This document shows positions 10,359 through 44,114 of a stretch of DNA of 46,112 bases, piece after piece. Positions within the stretch are counted from its first letter, which is position 1, and each line of letters begins with the position of its first letter. The position numbers were made by a program, and so were the translations under genes. Below the pieces are notes generated by a model that worked only from the letters and a program-made list of their open reading frames with translations, had not been told where the DNA came from and did no database searches. Location: the NCBI GenBank assembly GCA_021157815.1, contig JAGGVT010000168.1, positions 1 through 46,112 on the forward strand. Direction: 5' to 3'. This stretch comes from a bacterium. GTDB lineage: Bacteria > JAJVIF01 > JAGGVT01.

Positions 10359-11621
10359 TTAATTTTCCTCCCCTATAACCGCAACTGTATCCCCATCTTT
10401 AAGATTCTTATGCCCCTCAATAATCAAACTCTGTCCCACTTTAAGACCGCTGATTATTTCCGCCTTGTTCTCATCGATAATGCCTGTAAAGACCTCACGA
10501 ATGGATGCCCTGTTGCCATCAGCAACGAACACAAATTTACTAAGGCCGCGATTGACAATTGCATCAAGCGGTATAACGATGATGTTATTGCGTCCGCCGA
10601 ATTGAAATTTTGCGGATGCTGTCATGCCGGGCATTAATCTGCCGTCAGTATTTGTTACGGCTATTTCAGCGCCGAATGTTCCGGTTCGGATATCAGCTTT
10701 GACATCCACTTTCGTAATACTGCCTGTGAAAATTTCACCAGCGAAAGATTCAGGCAGGATTTCCACTTTGCTGCCGACTTTTATGTCTGCCGCTTCCACA
10801 GCATTCAATGAGATTGGAAGTTTTAGCTTGTCCAGTGTAACAACGTTGATTAACGGCATTCCCGGACTGACCATCTCGTTTTTCTCCACATAAATAAACG
10901 CGACAGTGCCGTCGATTGGACTGTGAAAAAACGCTTTGTTGTATTGGTTTCTTAAAAGGTCACGCTGCGCTTTCGCATTTTCAACCGCCGCTTTCACAGA
11001 TTCACGGTCCTCTTCTCTCGCGCCGATATCGGCGAGTTCCTTGCTTTTAAGGGCTGTTTCATATCCGGCTTTCGCTCCAGCGAGTTGCGATTCAGCACCG
11101 TCGAGTTCAGCTTTTGAAATCACTCCCTCATCAAACAGCTCCTGCATCCTGGCAAAATTCGCTTCAGCGTTTTTGAAATTAATTTTCGCGCTTTCAAGCT
11201 GGGCATTAATCTGCGCCATTTTCTCCGGCCTGACTCCGTTTTCAATTGTCTTGAGTGTTTGCTCAGCGCTGATTAGTCCGGCCTCCGCGGATGCAAGCTG
11301 ATATTTGAGAGATGCGTGTTCGATCTCAAGAATCAGTTCACCCTTTTTAACCGGCAGTCCCTCGTCAATATGGATTTTCTCAAGAGTGCCGCCGACTTCG
11401 GCCGTTAGCGTGATATCATCCCAGCCTTCAAGGATTCCCGATGTGGCAATTTGAAGGCTGATTGATCCTTTGGAAACTGCTTGCACTTTAACAGGAAGTC
11501 CGTTTTTCTCAACAGTCTCCGGTTCCGGATTTCCGGTTTTCCCGTTTGGCGCTTTGCATCCGGTAATTGGCAGGATGAGTATCGCGATGAGTGTGATAAA
11601 AATAAGTGTTGCCTTTTTCAT
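10359..11621 (-). CDS. RND efflux periplasmic adaptor, lipoprotein (HlyD/AcrA family)
   Basis: The membrane-fusion protein linking the RND pump to TolC. The signal peptide ends in a lipobox ITGC with Cys22, so the protein is lipid-anchored. A split lipoyl domain brackets a coiled-coil hairpin: the first half is near residues 65-95 (IHIDEGLPVKKGELILEIE), the hairpin about 100-215 (LKTIENGVRPEK..., then ARMQELFDEGVISKAELD), and the second half follows with PIDGTVAFIYVEKNEMVSPG. Beta-barrel and membrane-proximal domains follow (PGMTASAKF, VIPLDAIV). GAGGG lies 6 bases before the ATG. Confidence 0.93.
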   Translation of the reverse strand: MKKATLIFITLIAILILPITGCKAPNGKTGNPEPETVEKNGLPVKVQAVSKGSISLQIATSGILEGWDDITLTAEVGGTLEKIHIDEGLPVKKGELILEIEHASLKYQLASAEAGLISAEQTLKTIENGVRPEKMAQINAQLESAKINFKNAEANFARMQELFDEGVISKAELDGAESQLAGAKAGYETALKSKELADIGAREEDRESVKAAVENAKAQRDLLRNQYNKAFFHSPIDGTVAFIYVEKNEMVSPGMPLINVVTLDKLKLPISLNAVEAADIKVGSKVEILPESFAGEIFTGSITKVDVKADIRTGTFGAEIAVTNTDGRLMPGMTASAKFQFGGRNNIIVIPLDAIVNRGLSKFVFVADGNRASIREVFTGIIDENKAEIISGLKVGQSLIIEGHKNLKDGDTVAVIGEEN

Positions 11622-32385: not shown

Positions 32386-32418
32386 AAAAAACCTGACAGG
32401 AAGTTAATCCTGTTCAGG
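32386..32418 (-). terminator. Intrinsic terminator at the end of the ATP synthase operon
   Basis: On the minus strand CCTGAACAGGA and TCCTGTCAGG pair with one bulge and are followed by six T. The stem overlaps the last codons of the WD40-like gene. No terminator is seen earlier on this strand after atpC, so the WD40-like gene appears to be the final gene of the atp transcript. Confidence 0.7.
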
Positions 32419-34596
32419 CCCAATATTAATCCTGTAAATCCTTATTCGACCATATCCGCTGATCGATGCAAAAATGTTCTCAACCGGACTCCAGGCATGT
32501 TTAATGAATACATTACTGGCTCTCATCATTTTATCGATTTCCGCATCTTCTGATGAGATAGTGTAAATTGGGGACTTGCTGTCTGTTTTGTGGAAACAAA
32601 CATCACGAAGAAATTGAGAATGGGCTAGAATGCTGTCATCATGATTTAAACACAATCCCCCATCTAACCAGGTTATTTTTGTGATTGTTTCATCAGGCAG
32701 ATGTAATATCCAGGTTGCATCATTACCCCTCCTGTTGTCGCCGGAAAATGCAATAAAGGATTCATCATGGCTGACACTAATGCCTAAAATTGAGTCAGCT
32801 TTAGTATGTATTGTTGAAATGATTTCACCTGTTTCAATAGAAATAATATGCAAATCAGCTAATTTACTTTTCTGTTGTGTGCGGCGCAGCCTTGAGTTAT
32901 TACTTGCTGCAACCATCCGCTTTCCATCGGGGAATAGAACTGTACGGCTGACGAGTATATCCAGTTTAAATTCTCTCAATTTCTTCCCGGATGGCAAAGA
33001 CCATACTTCAAAGAGGTCACCTGGGAAATATGGAGATCCCTGTTTAATACATGAAACAAGTGTATGGCAATCCTGGCTCAGATAGGCATAATGGATTTCC
33101 TTTTCCCCAAGCTTAACCGTTCGTTCAAGCTTACCAGTCTTGGCATTAAGGTATCTGCAGGTATTGTCATTACCAACAGATATTAAACTCTCACCATCAG
33201 GGCTGAATTTTAAATCATGGATTCCCCCAATTTCGCTTTTAAAAGAATGAATAACTTTCTCGTTTGTTATATCAATCAGGTAATAATCGTAGAAATCCAT
33301 GTGAGGATTAGCACGAACATCACTCAGTTTATCACTTGCCACAACAACGGTGTTTTTAATCGGACCAAGCTTGAATGATTCACTAATCAGTTTGTCGCTT
33401 ATGTTTACAAGTTTTTCACCATCCCAGTTTAAAAACGTCGTGTCGATTATTGATTTCGGGTAGGAGAAATACTTAACTGATATATCCCCAGTATCCGGAT
33501 TGTATTGAATAAAACGTGGTGTTTCGTGCAAATTACCTTCACTAACAGTCTGCCCATCAGATATTCTTTTCACTAAAAGCCTCATCTTGAGTTTATCTTC
33601 AGTCTTGTTACAAAAGACAATGTGATTGTCATCAAGGAGTTGAAATTTCGATCCTGATTCCACAAAATAAACAGTCTCTTTTTTAGTCAAATCCCATACA
33701 TTAAATCCAATCTTCGGATAGGTGGACATGATAAACAGCAGTTTGTTGCTCCTGCTTAATTCAACTGCACCAGGATAATTCACGCCTTTTAACGGAAATG
33801 AATATAGTTGTTCTCCAGATTCAAGTGACCAGAGGATTAACTCTTGTTCTCTATAATCAGTTGTGCAAAGAAGACTACCATCATTACTTACAGCAAGAAT
33901 TTTGTTGTTCGTTTTGATCCTGGTTAAAATCTTGCCGGTCTTGATTGACCACATTACGACATAACGTTCTGCACCTCTAATATCCTGTATATACTTATCA
34001 CCAGGTGCAAACATTCCAGTATACCAGGACGGACACCAATTTTCATCACCAGCTGGGGACACGGATTCGAGCTCAATAACCTGCTCCGAGTTAAGTGTCC
34101 AAATGAATATTTTGCTGTAAAGCTTATTTGTCGCGAGATATTTGCCATCCGGGCTGAATCTCCAGAACCTGTGTATTTCAGGATTTACTCCCAGATTACG
34201 AACTACCTTTCCTGTTTCTGTAGACCAGATTTCAATATCCTTTCGAGCATTTGAGAAGGATAGAATATACCTTCCGCATGGGCTTACCTCCATGTTTTTG
34301 ATGTACTGCTTGTGTGGATCGACCCTGAACTGCAGTTCACCTGATGCTACGTCCCACATTGATATTTCATTTGATGCCGTTGCGGTTGCCAGATTTCTGC
34401 CATCAAGCGAAAACAGCATTTCAGTTGTTCTTGTGCTTTTAGGGCGGCCATCATAATCGATTGTCTGTATGAGAGATTTTATTTGCTTATAATCATGATG
34501 CAGCAATTCCGGGGGAATACATCCGGCAATCATCATTGTCAGCATTAAAACGCTGATATACAGGTATGGCTTTGTAATCAAGATATCTCCTCGCAT
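32404..34596 (-). CDS. WD40-like beta-propeller lipoprotein
   Basis: A lipoprotein (lipobox IAGC) of about 730 residues with multiple WD40/PQQ-like blades. Examples are FSLDGRNLATATASNEISMW, SPCGRYILSFSNARKDIEIW, FSPDGKYLATNKLYSKIFIW and FSPDGESLISVGNDNTCRYL, enough for two propellers. Such proteins are periplasmic interaction scaffolds; the partner is unknown. The start is uncertain: ATG 34596 has AAAGG 7 bases upstream, and TTG 34581 has AGGAG 5 bases upstream. It begins 13 bases after atpC and no terminator intervenes. Base composition is more AT-rich than the atp genes, like the neighbouring LRR gene. Confidence 0.8.
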   Translation of the reverse strand: MRGDILITKPYLYISVLMLTMMIAGCIPPELLHHDYKQIKSLIQTIDYDGRPKSTRTTEMLFSLDGRNLATATASNEISMWDVASGELQFRVDPHKQYIKNMEVSPCGRYILSFSNARKDIEIWSTETGKVVRNLGVNPEIHRFWRFSPDGKYLATNKLYSKIFIWTLNSEQVIELESVSPAGDENWCPSWYTGMFAPGDKYIQDIRGAERYVVMWSIKTGKILTRIKTNNKILAVSNDGSLLCTTDYREQELILWSLESGEQLYSFPLKGVNYPGAVELSRSNKLLFIMSTYPKIGFNVWDLTKKETVYFVESGSKFQLLDDNHIVFCNKTEDKLKMRLLVKRISDGQTVSEGNLHETPRFIQYNPDTGDISVKYFSYPKSIIDTTFLNWDGEKLVNISDKLISESFKLGPIKNTVVVASDKLSDVRANPHMDFYDYYLIDITNEKVIHSFKSEIGGIHDLKFSPDGESLISVGNDNTCRYLNAKTGKLERTVKLGEKEIHYAYLSQDCHTLVSCIKQGSPYFPGDLFEVWSLPSGKKLREFKLDILVSRTVLFPDGKRMVAASNNSRLRRTQQKSKLADLHIISIETGEIISTIHTKADSILGISVSHDESFIAFSGDNRRGNDATWILHLPDETITKITWLDGGLCLNHDDSILAHSQFLRDVCFHKTDSKSPIYTISSEDAEIDKMMRASNVFIKHAWSPVENIFASISGYGRIRIYRINIGPEQD

Positions 34597-34609
34597 TCTT
34601 AGGCCTTTC

Positions 34610-35020
34610 CTATTTTTTCTGCGCGACATCCAGACGATTTACCGCGCGTTCGTAGGCTGTCCTTGCACGGTCGATATCGATGTTTGTTCTGCCTGCCGCC
34701 AGATATTCACGCGCTCTTTCGCAAGCCAGTTTGGCGCGCTCGACATTTATCTCATCCTGCTGTTCAACTGAATCGGCGAGAACAATCACTTTGTTGTCGG
34801 CGACCTCGACAAATCCGTTGGATACCGCGAGAACCTCACGAACTCTGCCTTCGGTTATGTATTCAAGACAGCCGATTCGCATGGATGTCATTAACGGGGC
34901 ATGATTAGCCCAGATGCCGATGTAGCCATCCGAGGATGGCACAATAACCGAAATCACATTCATGTTAATAGCGGTTTTCTCGGGTGTTACGACTGATAAT
35001 TCAAAAGGTGTTTTTGGCAT
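34610..35020 (-). CDS. atpC: ATP synthase F1 subunit epsilon
   Basis: Rotor subunit that couples F1 to the c-ring and can inhibit ATP hydrolysis. The 136-residue length is normal. The N-terminal beta-sandwich shows FELSVVTPEK, DGYIGIWANHAPLMTSMRIG and NGFVEVADNKVIVLADSV; the C-terminal helical hairpin follows (RAKLACERAREYLA...). It is the last ATP synthase subunit gene, 18 bases after atpD. Confidence 0.95.
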   Translation of the reverse strand: MPKTPFELSVVTPEKTAINMNVISVIVPSSDGYIGIWANHAPLMTSMRIGCLEYITEGRVREVLAVSNGFVEVADNKVIVLADSVEQQDEINVERAKLACERAREYLAAGRTNIDIDRARTAYERAVNRLDVAQKK

Positions 35021-36771: not shown

Positions 36772-38031
36772 CTAACCTTTTAAAGCCTCGGCGCCGCTGA
36801 CGATTTCACTTAGTTCCTTGGTTATCATCGCCTGCCGTGCCTTGTTACGCTCAAGGGTTAAATCGTCAATCAGTTCACCCGCGTTGTCTGTCGCGTTTCG
36901 CATAGCTGCCATTCGAATCGTGTGCTCGCTTGTAAAGGAATGTGCGAGCGCCTGAAAAACCTTGTTACGCGCGTATGCGGGAATGAGACTCATGAATAAT
37001 TCACCGGGTGACGGTTCGAAAATGTAATCCCGTCCCGCAGCTGGTTTTTCGTTAGCAGACTGGTCTGCATCATCCTGGCCTGCGTGTCCGAGCGGCAGGA
37101 ATTGTTCGATAATCGGTTTCTGCCTTGCCGCTGATGTGTAGCGCGTGTACAGCAAACAAACACGGCTGACATGCTCCAGAGTATAAAGGCGTGTCAGCTT
37201 GTAAGTTATATGATTCAACTGCGAAATCGGCATCGTCTGGTCGAAATCTATTTCCGGTTCAAGCAGTCTGAGCCGGGGATTTGTTTCCTTTGAAAACTGT
37301 TTGAATATTTTTTTACCAATGGCCAGCATGAATACCTTCTTGCTGGTGATATTTATATCTGTAAGAAGTTTCGCAAGTTTGAGCGTTCCAGAGAAAATCA
37401 ACTCAAGGTTTTCAGCGTAAGACCACAAACGCCTTGGGGTTTCACCTGTCGATGTGTCAGTCCTGATGGAAAAATTTAACACACCATGGATTTCATTGCC
37501 ATCTGCAGGTTTGTACCTGTAATCTATTTTATATTGCCCGTCTTTACTGAGTATTGGGTCGTTTAATGACGGGTTTACAATTCCTTTTGAATCAACAGTT
37601 CCTTTGAACGTTATGGATTCATCCTCGGGGCCAGTCAGCGTAACATCAATCTCACCACCGGCAGGATCAAATCTGAACGTGAGCTCATCGGATAATTCAT
37701 CCCGGATGAATTTGTTTGCATTTTTGATGATATTTGAATTGTAGCTTGAGCAAAGGCCCTTGTCGGAACCCATGGCGACCAGCAGGACATTACCGGATTC
37801 AATGCCGGGTTTCATCAGCGGATGAAGCAGCTCATCCGAATCATCGAATGAAATGGACGCCATCAGGTGCGCGATAATCTGATCCATGCGATCGAAATAC
37901 GGCCTCGCGTTTTCGACTCTCTGCAACGCTTTTTTCAGTTTCGTTGCCGAGACCATTTCCATCGCGCGTGTAATCTGGCGGATTCCGCCGACACTCTTGA
38001 TTCGTCTTTTTATTACTCTCAGGTTTGCCAT
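36772..38031 (-). CDS. atpG: ATP synthase F1 subunit gamma with a large central insertion
   Basis: Central rotor shaft. Both ends are ordinary: RIKSVGGIRQITRAMEMVSATKL at residues 10-33 and NATDNAGELIDDLTLERNKA at 379-398, the coiled coil that enters the alpha3beta3 ring. The length, 419, far exceeds the usual 285-300. The extra part is mainly residues 113-226, after GLCSSYNSNIIKNANKFI. It is beta-rich and Ig-like in pattern (ITFKGTVDSKG, DGQYKIDYRYKPADG, GVLNFSIRTD). It sits at a different place from the short regulatory insert of cyanobacterial and chloroplast gamma. A smaller acidic loop is at 318-333. The ATG is 4 bases after the preceding stop. Confidence 0.95.
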   Translation of the reverse strand: MANLRVIKRRIKSVGGIRQITRAMEMVSATKLKKALQRVENARPYFDRMDQIIAHLMASISFDDSDELLHPLMKPGIESGNVLLVAMGSDKGLCSSYNSNIIKNANKFIRDELSDELTFRFDPAGGEIDVTLTGPEDESITFKGTVDSKGIVNPSLNDPILSKDGQYKIDYRYKPADGNEIHGVLNFSIRTDTSTGETPRRLWSYAENLELIFSGTLKLAKLLTDINITSKKVFMLAIGKKIFKQFSKETNPRLRLLEPEIDFDQTMPISQLNHITYKLTRLYTLEHVSRVCLLYTRYTSAARQKPIIEQFLPLGHAGQDDADQSANEKPAAGRDYIFEPSPGELFMSLIPAYARNKVFQALAHSFTSEHTIRMAAMRNATDNAGELIDDLTLERNKARQAMITKELSEIVSGAEALKG

Positions 38032-38035
38032 GTGA

Positions 38036-40828
38036 TTAATATTCCAGCCGTTCTGATCTTATTGTCATCCTGCTTGCCATGAATCTATTTTTCCCTTTTG
38101 CGTTAACTCCCTTGACGAAACAACTGATTTCAATCACATCCATCGGATCTCTCATATCCAGGTTAGGGATATCCTCTATGATTTTCGGGATGTTTATTGC
38201 AATTTCAAAACCGTTGCCCTTGAATTTAACTGAATCCTGAACTATCAATTCTCCGTTGAATTCAAGAGTGTAATTCGCGGTACCCTCAGTATAGGCATCT
38301 TCAGGGAATACCGATGCAAGAGTCAGAGGTTTGTTCCGCGCGATTTTATGTCCGCTTTTGATGTTCCATTCAAAACGGTTGGAGCCGCTATTTTTTATCA
38401 CATAAAAGGGGAACTGAACACTGCCGACTCCCGGTCCCATTTCCTCCAGAGTTTTAGGGTCTGTCTGGTTCGGATAGAATGAGTGTTTAACCTCATACAC
38501 CCCTTCCTGCCACAGTTCGATTGGCGGATCAATCATTTCCGTTGAGAATCCTCTCTCATCAACTTTGCATGTGAAAAAAGACTGTTCTCCGTTTGGGAGT
38601 GCCAATGTGATTTTCACAAGTCCCGGAGTCGGCGGGAAAACGTAAAAGCGGGGAACAAACGCTTTGTCTTTTGTAATCAGCGCGCCGGGATAAAAACTGA
38701 ACGAGTGCATGAACGGAGTTCTTTTTTCATACATGCTCACACGCCCGCCGGAAAACGGAACCGATGTTGGATTCAAAATTCCCTCCTTTGGAAATGCGCC
38801 TGTGGAAATCGCGCTGTAGTAGAATTTGTCGAGCGGATAATCCCGGAAAACCATGGAGCCATAGACCTGATAAAAATCACCCATATCAGCATCCATCAAC
38901 AGCCTGATTTTTTCGAGTTCGTCTGTCATGGGGCCGCCATCCTTGACAACGAACATAGTGCGGCCATCCGGAGCGCTTGCCGCGACATAGGAATACATTT
39001 TTCTATCGATTTTCTCCGGGTAGAAATGAGCCGGATTGGCATCCGCGGTTGAGCGTGGAAGCACTCCTATTTCGCCATCCGCAAGTTCATAAGTCCTTTC
39101 GCCCATTAATACTCGATTATCCCGTAGAGAATCCGTTAAAACAACCTTCATGTCGGGATCGAAAATCATGCAGGTGTCGATTGGAAAAGCGATCAATTCA
39201 TCGTTTCTTGGAGGAATTGTGAATACCTTGTCGCCTTGTGGATATGTGCTTCTGAACGCCGGGTCTTCGCCGCGCAATTCAATTGAATTCTTTGCGACAA
39301 CCACTCCCGCAAGAGTTTTCGCGCCCATGTAAAGCACACCGCGGCTGTCGTGATATTCGGCAATCAGGTCGATTCGATATTCCCCCTCTCTGGAGAACCT
39401 GATATCTTCCGTTTTTGTCCATCGTTTTTTCTTATATGTCGCAGGTGGCGTGTAAATGCCCCATCGGTTGCAGAAGATATTGAAACTGTCATCCTCAATT
39501 TTGCCCTTGATTGAATATGGATTGAGAGTTTTTTTCACGCTGATTTTTGCCGGAACAGGCGGGATTACACTCAGCGAGAGATCAAGGTTTTCCTTCGGTT
39601 TTAACGGCATTCCGGGTTTGAGCACAGGGCGCAGTTCAAGCGGTTTCGCGATATAGATATCGTATATTCCGCCGCCGTGGATTTTCACTCCGTTTTTATC
39701 CATCACATATCCGGTTATTTCGATTTCGTGATGGCCATACGCCGAAAACGCGAAAAAGAAACGCTCGTTTCCAGCGGTGAGATATGGCCCTTCCCATTCT
39801 TTAATTGGCGTATCGCCAAGGTCAATCATGTGGCCATCCGGAGTTTTAATGCTTACGGAAAACTCGCCCTTTGAAACATCAAGCGATAAAGGTGACTTTG
39901 ATAGCTTCTGCAAAAACGGAAGCGATGGTTCAAGGCGGTATGCAATCTGCCCGCCGTCCGGTGATACCGGCGGCAGCACAGCGATTGGTGAAAATCCACT
40001 TCGATTCGTAAGCGCGAAATTATCCTTTTCATGCCTTGAAATCACTCCACCGCATTCAATGTCGTCAGGAAGCAATACCCATGGAAGATGCGGGACAGAT
40101 GGTTTCCCTACCGGCGCGATTCCCATGCTGGCAAATGAACCGTTGTTTATATCGATATCCTCGTTGTTGGGATCAATATTTCTAAGCGTGATGAAATGAG
40201 TGTCATCCAGTTGTATGCCGACAAGGAGAGTGAATTTGTAATATCCCGCCGGAACGGTATCCTGATTGATGTTGTAATCAATCTGGAAATCTCCTCGAAC
40301 GAAACCGCCGTTCTTGTCAAGAACTAAATCGTCAGTTGGCACCAGGATTAATTGGTTAATTGGATGGCGTGATTTTCCGCCGAAAGTGTCAGTTGGGAAA
40401 TTCTTCAGGATACCCTCGACCGGAAGTCCTGTATCTGTGAGGTAACTGGAGGATAGAATGTGCTGGCCATAGCGGTAATCGCCGTTTGCATCAAAGATGC
40501 GTTCTCCGACAAGCAGTATAAAAATGCCCTTCATGATTTTTTCGCTGGCGTGATAACAGAGTCCGGGAGAGTGCATGTTAAAAGAACCTTGAACGTTAAT
40601 CTCCTGCGTGCTGCTCGTTGTATCTTCGATTGTCAGTCCCGCGGTTAGTTCCCATGTGCCATCCTCAGCCATAGCGCCGCCGTAACGGCTTTCCTCGATT
40701 GTAAATGTACTCGGCTGGAATGGTTCGCCTGAATCCGCTGCTGTCTCTGTATCCTGTGCCGAGACAGGCATTTTCAGAATCATGAGTATGAATACAAGCA
40801 GAGTTATTTTAAGGTATCTGGTTATCAT
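38036..40828 (-). CDS. Large exported beta-rich protein inside the atp operon
   Basis: I do not recognise this 930-residue protein. It has a signal peptide (cut near residue 24, PVSAQ) and no lipobox or later membrane helix, so it should be periplasmic or outer surface. The body looks like a chain of Ig-like beta-sandwich domains: PAGYYKFTLLVGIQLDDT, YGHHEIEITGYVMDKNG, REGEYRIDLIAEYHDSRG, GVYEVKHSFYPNQTDP and an ending MDVIEISCFVKGVNAKGKN. No catalytic motif is evident. It has its own Shine-Dalgarno (GGAG, 7 bases before ATG), lies 38 bases after atpA and ends 4 bases before atpG, so it is co-transcribed with the ATP synthase. Confidence 0.8.
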   Translation of the reverse strand: MITRYLKITLLVFILMILKMPVSAQDTETAADSGEPFQPSTFTIEESRYGGAMAEDGTWELTAGLTIEDTTSSTQEINVQGSFNMHSPGLCYHASEKIMKGIFILLVGERIFDANGDYRYGQHILSSSYLTDTGLPVEGILKNFPTDTFGGKSRHPINQLILVPTDDLVLDKNGGFVRGDFQIDYNINQDTVPAGYYKFTLLVGIQLDDTHFITLRNIDPNNEDIDINNGSFASMGIAPVGKPSVPHLPWVLLPDDIECGGVISRHEKDNFALTNRSGFSPIAVLPPVSPDGGQIAYRLEPSLPFLQKLSKSPLSLDVSKGEFSVSIKTPDGHMIDLGDTPIKEWEGPYLTAGNERFFFAFSAYGHHEIEITGYVMDKNGVKIHGGGIYDIYIAKPLELRPVLKPGMPLKPKENLDLSLSVIPPVPAKISVKKTLNPYSIKGKIEDDSFNIFCNRWGIYTPPATYKKKRWTKTEDIRFSREGEYRIDLIAEYHDSRGVLYMGAKTLAGVVVAKNSIELRGEDPAFRSTYPQGDKVFTIPPRNDELIAFPIDTCMIFDPDMKVVLTDSLRDNRVLMGERTYELADGEIGVLPRSTADANPAHFYPEKIDRKMYSYVAASAPDGRTMFVVKDGGPMTDELEKIRLLMDADMGDFYQVYGSMVFRDYPLDKFYYSAISTGAFPKEGILNPTSVPFSGGRVSMYEKRTPFMHSFSFYPGALITKDKAFVPRFYVFPPTPGLVKITLALPNGEQSFFTCKVDERGFSTEMIDPPIELWQEGVYEVKHSFYPNQTDPKTLEEMGPGVGSVQFPFYVIKNSGSNRFEWNIKSGHKIARNKPLTLASVFPEDAYTEGTANYTLEFNGELIVQDSVKFKGNGFEIAINIPKIIEDIPNLDMRDPMDVIEISCFVKGVNAKGKNRFMASRMTIRSERLEY

Positions 40829-40866: not shown

Positions 40867-42438
40867 TCACTCTTCAGATTCCTTATATGCTTTGCCAAGC
40901 GCCGGATGGTCGATTGTTTCCAGTTTCTTTTCATTGACAAAGCTGTCCTTGAATTCTCTCACAGCTTTACTGAGAAGTTGTTTGATATCATCTGTTATCT
41001 TGGGCTTAGCTTTGAGCGTAACTGTTATCTGCTGGTAGTTTTGATCAATGAAATCAAGAAACCCTTTTTCAAAATCCTTGATGAGACTACTGGGCAGGTC
41101 ATCAAGAAGACCTTCTGTTCCCGCGAATATAATTGCGACCTGATGCTCAACCGTCATTGGAACATACTGGTCCTGCTTGAGCACCTCAGTCATTTTTTCA
41201 CCGCGAATGATTTTTTTCTGCGTTGACACATCGAGTTCGCTTCCGAATTTCGCGAAAGCCTGAAGTTCTCTATACTGCGCGAGGTCAAGGCGAAGCATAC
41301 CGGCGACCTGTTTCATCATCTTTGTCTGGGCGTTTCCGCCGACACGGCTGACCGAAAGCCCAACGTTGATTGCCGGTCGAACACCCGCGTTGAACAGGTC
41401 GCTTTCCAGGTAAATCTGGCCATCAGTAATTGAAATAACATTTGTAGGAATGTACGCGCTCACATCGCCCGCCTGCGTTTCGATCACAGGTATTCCGGTC
41501 AGTGAGCCTTTACCCTCATCATCTGAAAGTTTGCATGACCTTTCCAGAAGGCGTGAATGGAGATAGAAAACATCGCCCGGATATGCCTCCCGTCCGGGAG
41601 GCCGTCTGAGCAGAAGCGCGAGTTCTCTATATGCCACAGCGTGTTTTGACAAATCATCGTACATTACAATAACGTGCTTGCCGTTGAACAGGAAATATTC
41701 ACCCATCGCGCATCCGGCATAGGGAGCGATATACTGCATCGGTGCCGGGTCTGACGCGCTTGCCGCGACGATGGTCGTGTACTCCATCGCGCCATTTTCC
41801 TCAAGAACCTTGACAACCTGCGCTACAGTTGACTGCTTTTGCCCAATCGCCACATAAATACAGTACAGGTCAGTGTCTTTCTGGTTGATTATTGTGTCAA
41901 CAAGCAGAGCTGTTTTTCCAGTCTGGCGATCTCCAATGATTAGCTCGCGCTGGCCTCGCCCGATTGGAATCATGGAGTCAATAGATTTCAAGCCTGTCTG
42001 GACAGGCTCTTTAACAGGCTGTCGCGCGACAATTCCCGGCGCTATAAATTCCAACGGGCGTGTTTCCTTAAATGCAATTTCGCCCTTGCCGTCAAGCGGT
42101 TCGCCGACAGGATTTACAACTCGCCCGATTACTGATTCACCGACAGGGACCTCGCTGATTCGCTGTGTTCTCTTTACAATGTCGCCTTCCTTGATGTGGT
42201 GCGCGTCGCCTAAAAGAGCCGCTCCTACATTATCCTCCTCGAGATTCAGCACCATTCCCTTGACTCCACCTGGGAATTCAAGGAGTTCTCCAGCCATTGC
42301 ATCCTCAAGGCCGTAAATACGCGCGATGCCATCACCGATTTGGAGAATCGTACCGACTGACTCCATCTCAAGCGGTATGTCATACTTGGATATTTCCTGC
42401 TGGATTATCGAACTTACTTCTTCTGGTCTAAGCGACAT
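40867..42438 (-). CDS. atpA: ATP synthase F1 subunit alpha
   Basis: Non-catalytic nucleotide-binding subunit, three per F1. It has 523 residues, slightly longer than usual because of a C-terminal Lys/Glu-rich end. The P-loop GDRQTGKT is at 169-176. [11 protein letters not shown]-type strands ([20 protein letters not shown]), [11 protein letters not shown] and [20 protein letters not shown] follow. The N-terminal delta-binding helix ([10 protein letters not shown]) is present. AAGGTGG lies 7 bases before the ATG. A MITE and an exported-protein gene separate it from atpH. Confidence 0.98.
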
Positions 42439-42688: not shown

Positions 42689-43510
42689 TCAATTGGTCCG
42701 CCATGCGATTTTCTGTTCGTTTACAAACAAAAGGTAATTCAGTTCTTCCCCTCTTTCCTCAATGATATCCGAATCGGGCATTGCCAGTATTGCGTTTGCC
42801 TGCGCCACAAGCGCATTGTGATCGACATCATAAATCCTGCCCATGTCCGCGACTCTGATTCGACCGCCATCCAGAAACGCCACTACGCTGTGAATGTGGT
42901 CCCAGTCAACATAAACAATATGAACATCCCCGTCTTCACCGGCGGACGGGTCTTTTAACGGTGTGAAACACTGCCAGTTTGAGTATTCCGAGTAATCATC
43001 GAGAACGTCATCGGATGAATACGCCACACTTAGAATCACGGGCCCTCTGATTAAATTAAAATACAATTTCTGTAAAAGCCGTTCCAACTCTTCATGGCGT
43101 GGATATTCAATCCTGACAAGCGCGGCGTTGCCATCAAGTTCTTTGTAAATATGCCCCTTTCGCCTTGATGTCAAATCCAGCGGTTTTAGAAACACTTTGT
43201 CGCCATGGCCGTTCAAGCTTGGCCTTAGCATTTCATGGAAATAATCATCCGCGTAAAAAGCCCACTCTCCGAAATCAAAATAACCGGGGTCCATTAAAGG
43301 CATCGGAAGAGCTTTTGGCATGAATTTATCGTTGCTGCGATGTTCAAGATAGTTCATGCCGATTTTCAAAGCTGTAATGCTCGATTTTGTATCCAAAAGA
43401 GGGCCATCGTCCTCTGATGTCATTTCAAATCCGTAAACGCCTGAGCCATATCCAAGCGCCAATGCAAAGCAGATAACGCAACATGTAACAAATATTGATA
43501 TTTTTTTCAT
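42689..43510 (-). CDS. Exported protein of unknown function inside the atp operon
   Basis: I do not recognise a family. The 273-residue protein has a clear signal peptide (to about residue 27, GVYG). The central part reads RGPVILSVAYSSDDV, and later DHIHSVVAFLDGGRIRVADM. This G-P-V-I...H-S-V-V...D order is loosely like C39/papain-fold proteins, but the catalytic Cys context is not convincing. It lies 31 bases after atpH with AGGAAG 10 bases before its ATG, and is followed by a MITE and atpA. Operon position suggests expression together with the ATP synthase, but the mature protein would be outside the cytoplasm. Confidence 0.75.
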   Translation of the reverse strand: MKKISIFVTCCVICFALALGYGSGVYGFEMTSEDDGPLLDTKSSITALKIGMNYLEHRSNDKFMPKALPMPLMDPGYFDFGEWAFYADDYFHEMLRPSLNGHGDKVFLKPLDLTSRRKGHIYKELDGNAALVRIEYPRHEELERLLQKLYFNLIRGPVILSVAYSSDDVLDDYSEYSNWQCFTPLKDPSAGEDGDVHIVYVDWDHIHSVVAFLDGGRIRVADMGRIYDVDHNALVAQANAILAMPDSDIIEERGEELNYLLFVNEQKIAWRTN

Positions 43511-43541: not shown

Positions 43542-44114
43542 TCAACTGGCGATCTCCTCGCTGGGAAGATGCGTTTTTACTTCAAGCAGGTCTCGCCGAA
43601 TGGAATCAAGCCTGTAACGGATGGAACCGTCTATGACATGATTGCCTAACCAAAGGACAATACCGCCGATAAGCGATGGGTCAACTTCACGTTCAAGAGT
43701 GATTTTCCGTCCGCTGAATTTCTGCACTTTCGCTTCAAGCAGTTTGAATTCATCGTCATGCATCTTGACAGCGGTTATGACCATGCCGGCTTCAACGCCT
43801 TTCAGCTCATCAGCGAGCGCGCTGAATCGATTGGCGATTTTCGTTGTTATATTCTCGCGATGCTTGTCTATTATAAGGAAAATAAGGTTGAGAACATCAT
43901 CACAAATCAATTCGGAAAACACTTTTCTGATGAGCGCTTTCTTGTCTGATTGCGGCACGAGCGGTGATAGAAAGAAACGCCTGAAAGTATCATCGGTTTC
44001 AATAAGCCTGCCGACAAGGTTGATCTCGGCGTCAATTTTGTCGAGTTCATTCAGATCGGAAATTGTTCCAACCAGCGCCTGCGCGTATCTATCTGCTACA
44101 ACACTGTCAGTCAA
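43542..44114 (-). CDS. atpH: ATP synthase F1 subunit delta
   Basis: Peripheral stalk cap joining the alpha N-terminus to subunit b. The 190 residues show the usual start VVADRYAQALVG and the C-terminal PSLIGGIVLWLGNHVIDGSI, the best conserved block of the family. The start is TTG, 3 bases after the atpF stop. Confidence 0.95.
   Translation of the reverse strand: MTDSVVADRYAQALVGTISDLNELDKIDAEINLVGRLIETDDTFRRFFLSPLVPQSDKKALIRKVFSELICDDVLNLIFLIIDKHRENITTKIANRFSALADELKGVEAGMVITAVKMHDDEFKLLEAKVQKFSGRKITLEREVDPSLIGGIVLWLGNHVIDGSIRYRLDSIRRDLLEVKTHLPSEEIAS

What the first reader, a model, noticed from the sequence alone, without database searches (positions are those of the whole stretch)
38036..40828. 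A 930-residue exported beta-rich protein encoded between atpA and atpG
atpA and atpG are normally adjacent. Here a gene for a signal-peptide-bearing protein lies between them with 38- and 4-base gaps and its own Shine-Dalgarno, so it is a true operon member rather than a disruption. The F1 part is cytoplasmic and the product would be extracytoplasmic, so a link to F1 would have to be indirect, for example matching envelope or motility components to energy supply. I know of no described ATP synthase partner of this kind.
Basis: partly seen in the sequence, partly recalled or inferred. Interest (0 to 1): 0.75.

Follow-up and report, generated by a model that had tools for sequence, protein, structure and literature searches.

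The report
Exported cytochrome-partner relative in atp operon
In a little-known group of bacteria the genes for the ATP-making machine contain, in the middle, a conserved gene for a large exported protein whose distant relatives elsewhere are paired with electron-carrying cytochromes, which hints at a link between electron transfer in the cell envelope and ATP synthesis that nobody has tested.

Summary
A 930-aa ORF (40828-38036, - strand) with a signal-peptide-like N-terminus lies between atpA and atpG with gaps of 38 and 4 bases. Of the 3 other held genomes of its class, two (one other family) have a 29%-identical homologue at the same place; in the third the atp operon is split and the homologue lies about 5.5 kb downstream of atpA. 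A second exported gene, between atpH and atpA, is conserved in the same two genomes. The protein has no Pfam or NCBIfam family. Profiles find it in 7 genomes of four families outside the class, as lipoproteins; 13 of 14 copies seen are fused to or beside a homologous three-haem cytochrome c, the 14th running into a contig end. The class lacks that cytochrome at E<=1 and the lipid anchor. Best reading: a periplasmic beta-sandwich protein of a cytochrome-linked family, captured by the atp operon in the class ancestor and co-expressed with ATP synthase. Contact with F1Fo is unproven. Gamma here also carries an inserted Ig-like domain that resembles a domain of this protein.

The parts
38036..40828 (-). 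protein X: 930-aa exported beta-rich protein between atpA and atpG
   Evidence: homologues; signal peptide by eye
40867..42438 (-). atpA (alpha subunit), gap of 38 bases to X
   Evidence: used as query
36772..38031 (-). atpG (gamma subunit), 419 aa, gap of 4 bases from X
   Evidence: PF00231 5.9e-82; TIGR01146 1.7e-75
37345..37686 (-). in-frame insert in gamma (about residues 116-229), Ig-like, resembling X residues 731-787
   Evidence: approximate limits
38468..38644 (-). Ig-like domain of X that the gamma insert resembles
   Evidence: (E 0.048 in the whole own genome)
42689..43510 (-). second exported ORF (273 aa) between atpH and atpA; no Pfam family
   Evidence: homologues at the same place in G001 and G003, none in G002
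43542..44114 (-). atpH (delta subunit)
   Evidence: PF00213
44118..44708 (-). atpF (b subunit)
   Evidence: PF00430
45016..45903 (-). atpB (a subunit)
   Evidence: PF00119
35039..36463 (-). atpD (beta subunit), no insert here
   Evidence: sequence
34610..35020 (-). atpC (epsilon subunit)
   Evidence: sequence, by eye

Best explanation
X is an exported, soluble, multi-domain beta-sandwich protein of an undescribed family whose other members are lipoproteins working with a dedicated three-haem c-type cytochrome. In the ancestor of this class the X gene came to lie between atpA and atpG, without a lipid anchor and without the linked cytochrome, and has since been kept as a co-transcribed member of the atp operon. 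Its likely role is on the periplasmic side of the energy-coupling membrane, as a binding or scaffold partner in electron transfer or envelope bioenergetics whose amount is tied to ATP synthase. It is not an F1 subunit. Shown: the gene, its neighbours, conserved synteny, the family, the haem linkage elsewhere, purifying selection. Inferred: export, co-transcription, and every statement of function.
For: Same position in 2 of the 3 other class genomes, with short gaps and 28-29% identity. The third keeps X on the same strand about 5.5 kb downstream of atpA, where its atp operon is broken. X of the class is one clade at 100/100, with G000 grouping with G002 (98/99), so the atp location is most simply ancestral. 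G001 versus G003: X 72% identity, pN 0.159; atpG 73%, pN 0.175. Outside the class, 7 genomes in 4 families, 14 copies seen: 3 fused to a C-terminal three-CXXCH cytochrome (G259, G122, G389), 10 with a cytochrome of that kind within about 0.5 kb (G317 x4, G183 x1, G390 x1, G393 x4; the neighbour of one G393 copy is frame-broken with 2+1 motifs), and 1 in G390 undetermined at a contig end. All 4 G317 pairs overlap or abut. Ten of the cytochromes align as one family with all three CXXCH invariant. In G002, two dihaem peroxidase genes (PF03150) lie between atpA and X.
Against: No three-haem cytochrome of that family is found in the 4 class genomes at E<=1, so the partner elsewhere may say little about the role here. 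The lipobox is absent in the class (by eye). Invariant residues of X are mostly Gly and Pro, with no invariant Cys or His, so no catalytic or metal site is visible. The structure model is poor (mean pLDDT 42.3). Only 4 genomes of the class are held, and synteny rests on 2 families; G001 and G003 share a genus and count as one lineage.
Confidence: 0.5

Rival explanations
1. Passenger with growth-linked expression: X is a general envelope or surface protein that fell into a highly expressed operon and stayed because co-expression with atp genes does no harm. It has no functional tie to respiration or ATP synthase.
For: Exported-looking genes sit in an unrelated atp operon too (G056: a 114-aa lipoprotein-like ORF between atpA and atpG and a 368-aa outer-membrane-like ORF between atpG and atpD). 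Other ORFs fill this gap in G019 and G051. X is far more divergent between families (28-30%) than atpA (71-72%).
Against: The position survived between two families while X diverged to 29%; a second exported gene at atpH-atpA is conserved in the same two families; X is as constrained as atpG inside one genus.
Confidence: 0.3
2. X and the 273-aa protein are clade-specific periplasmic accessory parts of ATP synthase itself, binding the outer face of Fo (a subunit or c ring) to stabilise, dimerise or regulate it.
For: Two exported genes interleaved with F1 genes in two families; large inserts in gamma (G000) or beta (G001, G003) show that ATP synthase of this clade is structurally altered (beta of G003 seen).
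Against: G002 has a split atp operon without the 273-aa gene at E<=1 and with X not adjacent. The inserts differ between families, so none is a common feature. X relatives exist without atp linkage. No direct evidence of contact.
Confidence: 0.12
3. Assembly error or recent disruption of the atp operon.
For: The window's genome is a fragmented draft (221 contigs, 90.88% complete).
Against: The same order occurs in independently assembled records (JAPKYR010000138.1 and DAOVJF010000214.1), with intact frames of X.
Confidence: 0.02

Closest known systems
Standard bacterial atp operon (a-c-b-delta-alpha-gamma-beta-epsilon; PMC5709465, passages seen)
   Same: Gene order of all identified subunit genes is the common one.
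   Different: An exported ORF is interposed at delta/alpha and another at alpha/gamma; gamma is about 119 aa longer than in G001.
F1-like X0 ATPase clusters of mollicutes (PMC3369863, abstract and passages seen; gliding-motor papers PMC8406192 and PMC11864180, search listing only)
   Same: An ATPase gene cluster that includes unrelated proteins, some at the membrane or surface.
   Different: Those clusters are additional to a normal F1Fo operon and lack recognisable Fo genes. Here it is a full F1Fo operon with one atpA match in the genome at E<=1e-70. X was not compared with the mollicute proteins.
Phototroph-specific beta-hairpin insert of gamma (PMC8390522, abstract and passages seen)
   Same: An insert in the Rossmann-like domain of gamma.
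   Different: 30 or 39 residues there; about 119 residues here, around residue 116 instead of about 198-222, and Ig-like.
Quinohaemoprotein amine dehydrogenase alpha subunit (PF09098) and other c-type cytochromes
   Same: The haem-binding partners of X relatives match PF09098, PF13442 and PF10643.
   Different: X of the window matches no Pfam model at E<=10 and carries no haem motif.
Alpha-2-macroglobulin / complement C3-C5 MG domains
   Same: Residues about 704-927 of the X model align to MG-domain pairs, Z 9-10.
   Different: The rmsd is about 7-8 A or more over two domains, the model is poor, no Pfam MG domain was found, and no thioester motif (recalled) was seen by eye. Treat as an arrangement of beta-sandwich domains only.

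Membership tests
atp operon member | same strand, short gaps, no terminator between | tested here: met
   gaps of 38 and 4 bases; no - strand terminator-like site in either junction, though the scan found no more sites than chance (13 versus 13.0)
atp operon member | position conserved in relatives | tested here: met
   2 of 3 other class genomes; the third has X about 5.5 kb from atpA
atp operon member | shared transcript | not testable with these tools
   no expression data held
X lipoprotein family paired with a three-haem cytochrome | full-length sequence homology | tested here: met
   profile of the 4 class proteins finds G259 at 2.0e-90 and G183 at 7.2e-80; 11-member alignment
X lipoprotein family paired with a three-haem cytochrome | lipobox cysteine at the signal peptide | tested here: not met
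   present in all 7 outside members of A3, absent in the 4 class members (by eye)
X lipoprotein family paired with a three-haem cytochrome | linked or fused three-haem cytochrome | tested here: not met
   none beside X in the window or the atp loci of the class and none in the 4 class genomes at E<=1
F1-like X0 ATPase of mollicutes | no Fo subunits in the cluster | tested here: not met
   a, b and delta genes present
Alpha-2-macroglobulin | MG-domain chain | tested here: inconclusive
   no Pfam hit; fold look Z 9-10 on a model of mean pLDDT 42.3
CopC domain (gamma insert) | Pfam gathering score | tested here: inconclusive
   23.8 bits for the insert alone against a cut-off of 23.3, 20.3 bits for whole gamma; copper ligands not tested

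The most novel reading that the evidence does not exclude
In this class ATP synthase has been physically remodelled around X. X and the 273-aa protein act at the outer face, and an X-type Ig-like domain came to sit in the rotor subunit gamma in the window's lineage while beta gained another insert in the sister family. This would be the first case of an exported relative of cytochrome-partner proteins acting as a partner of F1Fo.
Probability: 0.1. Interest if true: 0.88.

Novelty: new variant of a known kind. Interest (0 to 1): 0.6.

Why it matters
The atp operon is among the most conserved in bacteria. An exported protein held between its alpha and gamma genes through deep divergence, from a family that elsewhere travels with a three-haem cytochrome wherever the neighbourhood could be read, points to an unstudied envelope component of energy metabolism. 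It also gives a concrete, testable family (X plus three-haem cytochrome) with no name in Pfam or NCBIfam as searched here, and a gamma subunit with a large inserted domain that tests how much the rotor can carry.

Tried and rejected
Structure of X: AlphaFold with 3 sequences gave mean pLDDT 42.3. The aligner look at PDB found complement and macroglobulin MG domains at Z 9-10 with rmsd of about 7-17 A for most of the top rows; no function is drawn from it. Structure of gamma with its insert: mean pLDDT 37.4, not used. PDB by sequence: nothing for X (best E 0.15 with A1, 0.22 with A3) and nothing for the gamma insert. The beta insert of G001 matched only through its flanking beta-subunit residues, apart from one E 1.8 row. 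Promoter and terminator scans were at chance level. In one search the G002 beta row was read in a wrong frame and is ignored; the G002 beta shows no insert.

Disruption or misassembly: rejected by synteny. DNA similarity between the gamma insert and X: none beyond 12 bases, so a recent copy is excluded; only protein-level resemblance remains. X of G001 and G003 does not resemble the insert (scores 38 and 31 against 74 for the window's X), which weakens the copy idea.

Rows left out of the gap survey: atpA was found in 49 of 59 genomes and atpG in 49 of 59. 44 were counted. G002, G005, G015 and G031 were dropped because the two genes are not neighbours, and G039 because only the C-terminal part of atpG matched. 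The coordinates were copied by hand into; they are match limits, so gaps are approximate (the G019 atpA match is partial). The profile searches scored only the 2 best candidates per genome, so copy numbers are lower bounds. The same genomes recur. The literature searches listed no paper whose title or abstract start describes an exported gene between atpA and atpG; this library misses most subscription journals.

Full report
What is there. The 930-aa ORF is at 40828-38036 on the - strand with gaps of 38 and 4 bases to atpA and atpG. The order on the - strand is atpB, atpF, atpH, a 273-aa ORF, atpA, X, atpG, atpD, atpC, then a WD40 lipoprotein-like ORF whose start overlaps the end of atpC (Pfam; I did not look for atpE between atpB and atpF). 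X and the 273-aa ORF both start with signal-peptide-like segments (by eye). Neither has a Pfam family at E<=10 or an NCBIfam family at E<=1. X has no second copy in its own genome at E<=10.

Relatives. Three other genomes of the class are held. G001 (its contig appears as JAPKYR010000138.1, a Lake Pavin sediment MAG by its title) and G003 (DAOVJF010000214.1, labelled Planctomycetota CSMAG_1386) are one genus; G002 is another family. In G001 the order is atpH, 280-aa exported ORF, atpA, X (966 aa), atpG, atpD, atpC. In G003 the two contigs read give atpH, 280-aa ORF, atpA start, and atpA end, X (960 aa), atpG, atpD. In G002 the operon ends at atpA. X follows about 5.5 kb downstream on the same strand, past two dihaem cytochrome c peroxidase genes and an ORF on the other strand. 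atpG and atpD are on another contig, apart from each other, and no homologue of the 273-aa protein was found at E<=1. The three other X proteins are 28-30% identical to the window's while atpA is 71-72% (the G003 fragment 64%).

How unusual. Among 44 genomes with neighbouring atpA and atpG, 38 have gaps up to 159 bases. The six larger gaps are G000, G001, G003, G019, G051 and G056. The last three hold other ORFs, and in G056 two of the extra ORFs look exported. So extra genes in this place are rare but not unique to the class.

The wider family. A profile of the 4 class proteins hit 8 of 385 genomes: the 4 class members and G122, G183, G259, G317. With the 11-member profile, G389, G390 and G393 were added (7 of 385 and 8 of 385 genomes, overlapping sets), making 7 genomes in 4 families outside the class. 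In the stretches L058-L062 I recognised no atp gene by eye. All 7 outside members in alignment A3 have a lipobox cysteine; the 4 class members do not (by eye).

The cytochrome link. G259 and G122 end in cytochrome c domains (PF13442). Counting CXXCH motifs in ORFs of the loci, the X ORFs of G259, G122 and G389 hold three each, at the C-terminus. Each of the 4 copies in G317 abuts or overlaps a three-CXXCH ORF (PF10643/PF09098 for the one scanned). G183 and G390 have one at 468 and 295 bases on the other strand. Two G393 copies have intact three-CXXCH neighbours. A third has a frame-broken neighbour with 2+1 motifs, and the fourth a homologous ORF at the edge of my stretch, found but not motif-counted. 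One G390 copy runs into the contig end without a cytochrome in view. That is 13 of 14 copies linked. Ten of these cytochromes align with all three CXXCH invariant. In the class no member of this cytochrome family is found at E<=1 in 4 genomes, while the same search recovers those of G183 and G390, which were in the profile.

Selection and history. Class X is one side of a branch at 100/100, and G000 pairs with G002 at 98/99 (G002 is a long branch). With X at the atp place in G000 and in G001/G003, the simplest history is a single capture before the class diversified and a later operon break in G002. Within the G001/G003 genus, synonymous sites are near saturation, but pN of X (0.159) is like that of atpG (0.175), atpF (0.169) and the 280-aa ORF (0.185), so X is under purifying selection comparable to the atp genes around it.

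The gamma insert. Gamma of G000 is 419 aa against 291-300 in six others aligned; the extra stretch is about residues 116-229. Alone it passes the CopC gathering score by 0.5 bit. In its own genome the only other hit at E<=10 is in X, E 0.048. Its alignment score of 74 against X was reached by 0 of 2000 shuffles of the insert and 1 of 2000 shuffles of X. The same domain in G002 X scores 54 (4 and 6 of 2000). There is no DNA-level match. This is suggestive of shared ancestry of Ig-like domains; a copy from X is possible but not shown. G001 beta has a different insert of about 87 residues near the catalytic loop, seen also in G003 up to its contig end; G000 beta lacks it.

Reading. The operon membership is well supported. 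The functional reading rests on two independent kinds of context: atp genes in the class, and three-haem cytochromes elsewhere. Both belong to chemiosmotic energy conversion, and X looks exported in all cases where the N-terminus was seen. I therefore favour a periplasmic or envelope role in electron transfer or its coupling, co-expressed with ATP synthase, over a subunit role. Confidence is moderate because the cytochrome itself is missing from the class and no structure of quality could be obtained.

Noticed in passing
window 42689-43510: Second exported ORF (273 aa) between atpH and atpA, conserved at that place in G001 and G003 (41% identity over the matched part), not found in G002.
   Followed up: partly
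window 37345-37686: In-frame Ig-like insert in the gamma subunit, resembling a domain of the neighbouring exported protein.
   Followed up: partly
L036 about 10930-11200: Insert of about 87 residues in the ATP synthase beta subunit of G001 near the catalytic loop (also G003, L035); absent from the window's beta.
   Followed up: partly
window 32404-34629: WD40 lipoprotein-like ORF whose start overlaps the end of atpC. WD40 propeller ORFs also stand among the X-cytochrome pairs of G317 (L061 9013-10065, L062 5668-6954).
   Followed up: no
L064 5369-5710 and 6990-8093: In the unrelated genome G056, a small lipoprotein-like ORF lies between atpA and atpG and an outer-membrane-like ORF between atpG and atpD.
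   Followed up: no
L065 4089-4646; L063 2740-3580: Other unrelated ORFs between atpA and atpG in G019 and G051.
   Followed up: no
L061, L062: G317 holds four X-plus-three-haem-cytochrome gene pairs within about 28 kb, a family expansion.
   Followed up: partly
L084: Two X copies and a cytochrome of G393 are broken over several frames (pseudogenes or assembly errors).
   Followed up: no
L058 1160-7734: Two CHASE2 adenylate/guanylate cyclase ORFs directly upstream of the X-cytochrome fusion in G259.
   Followed up: no
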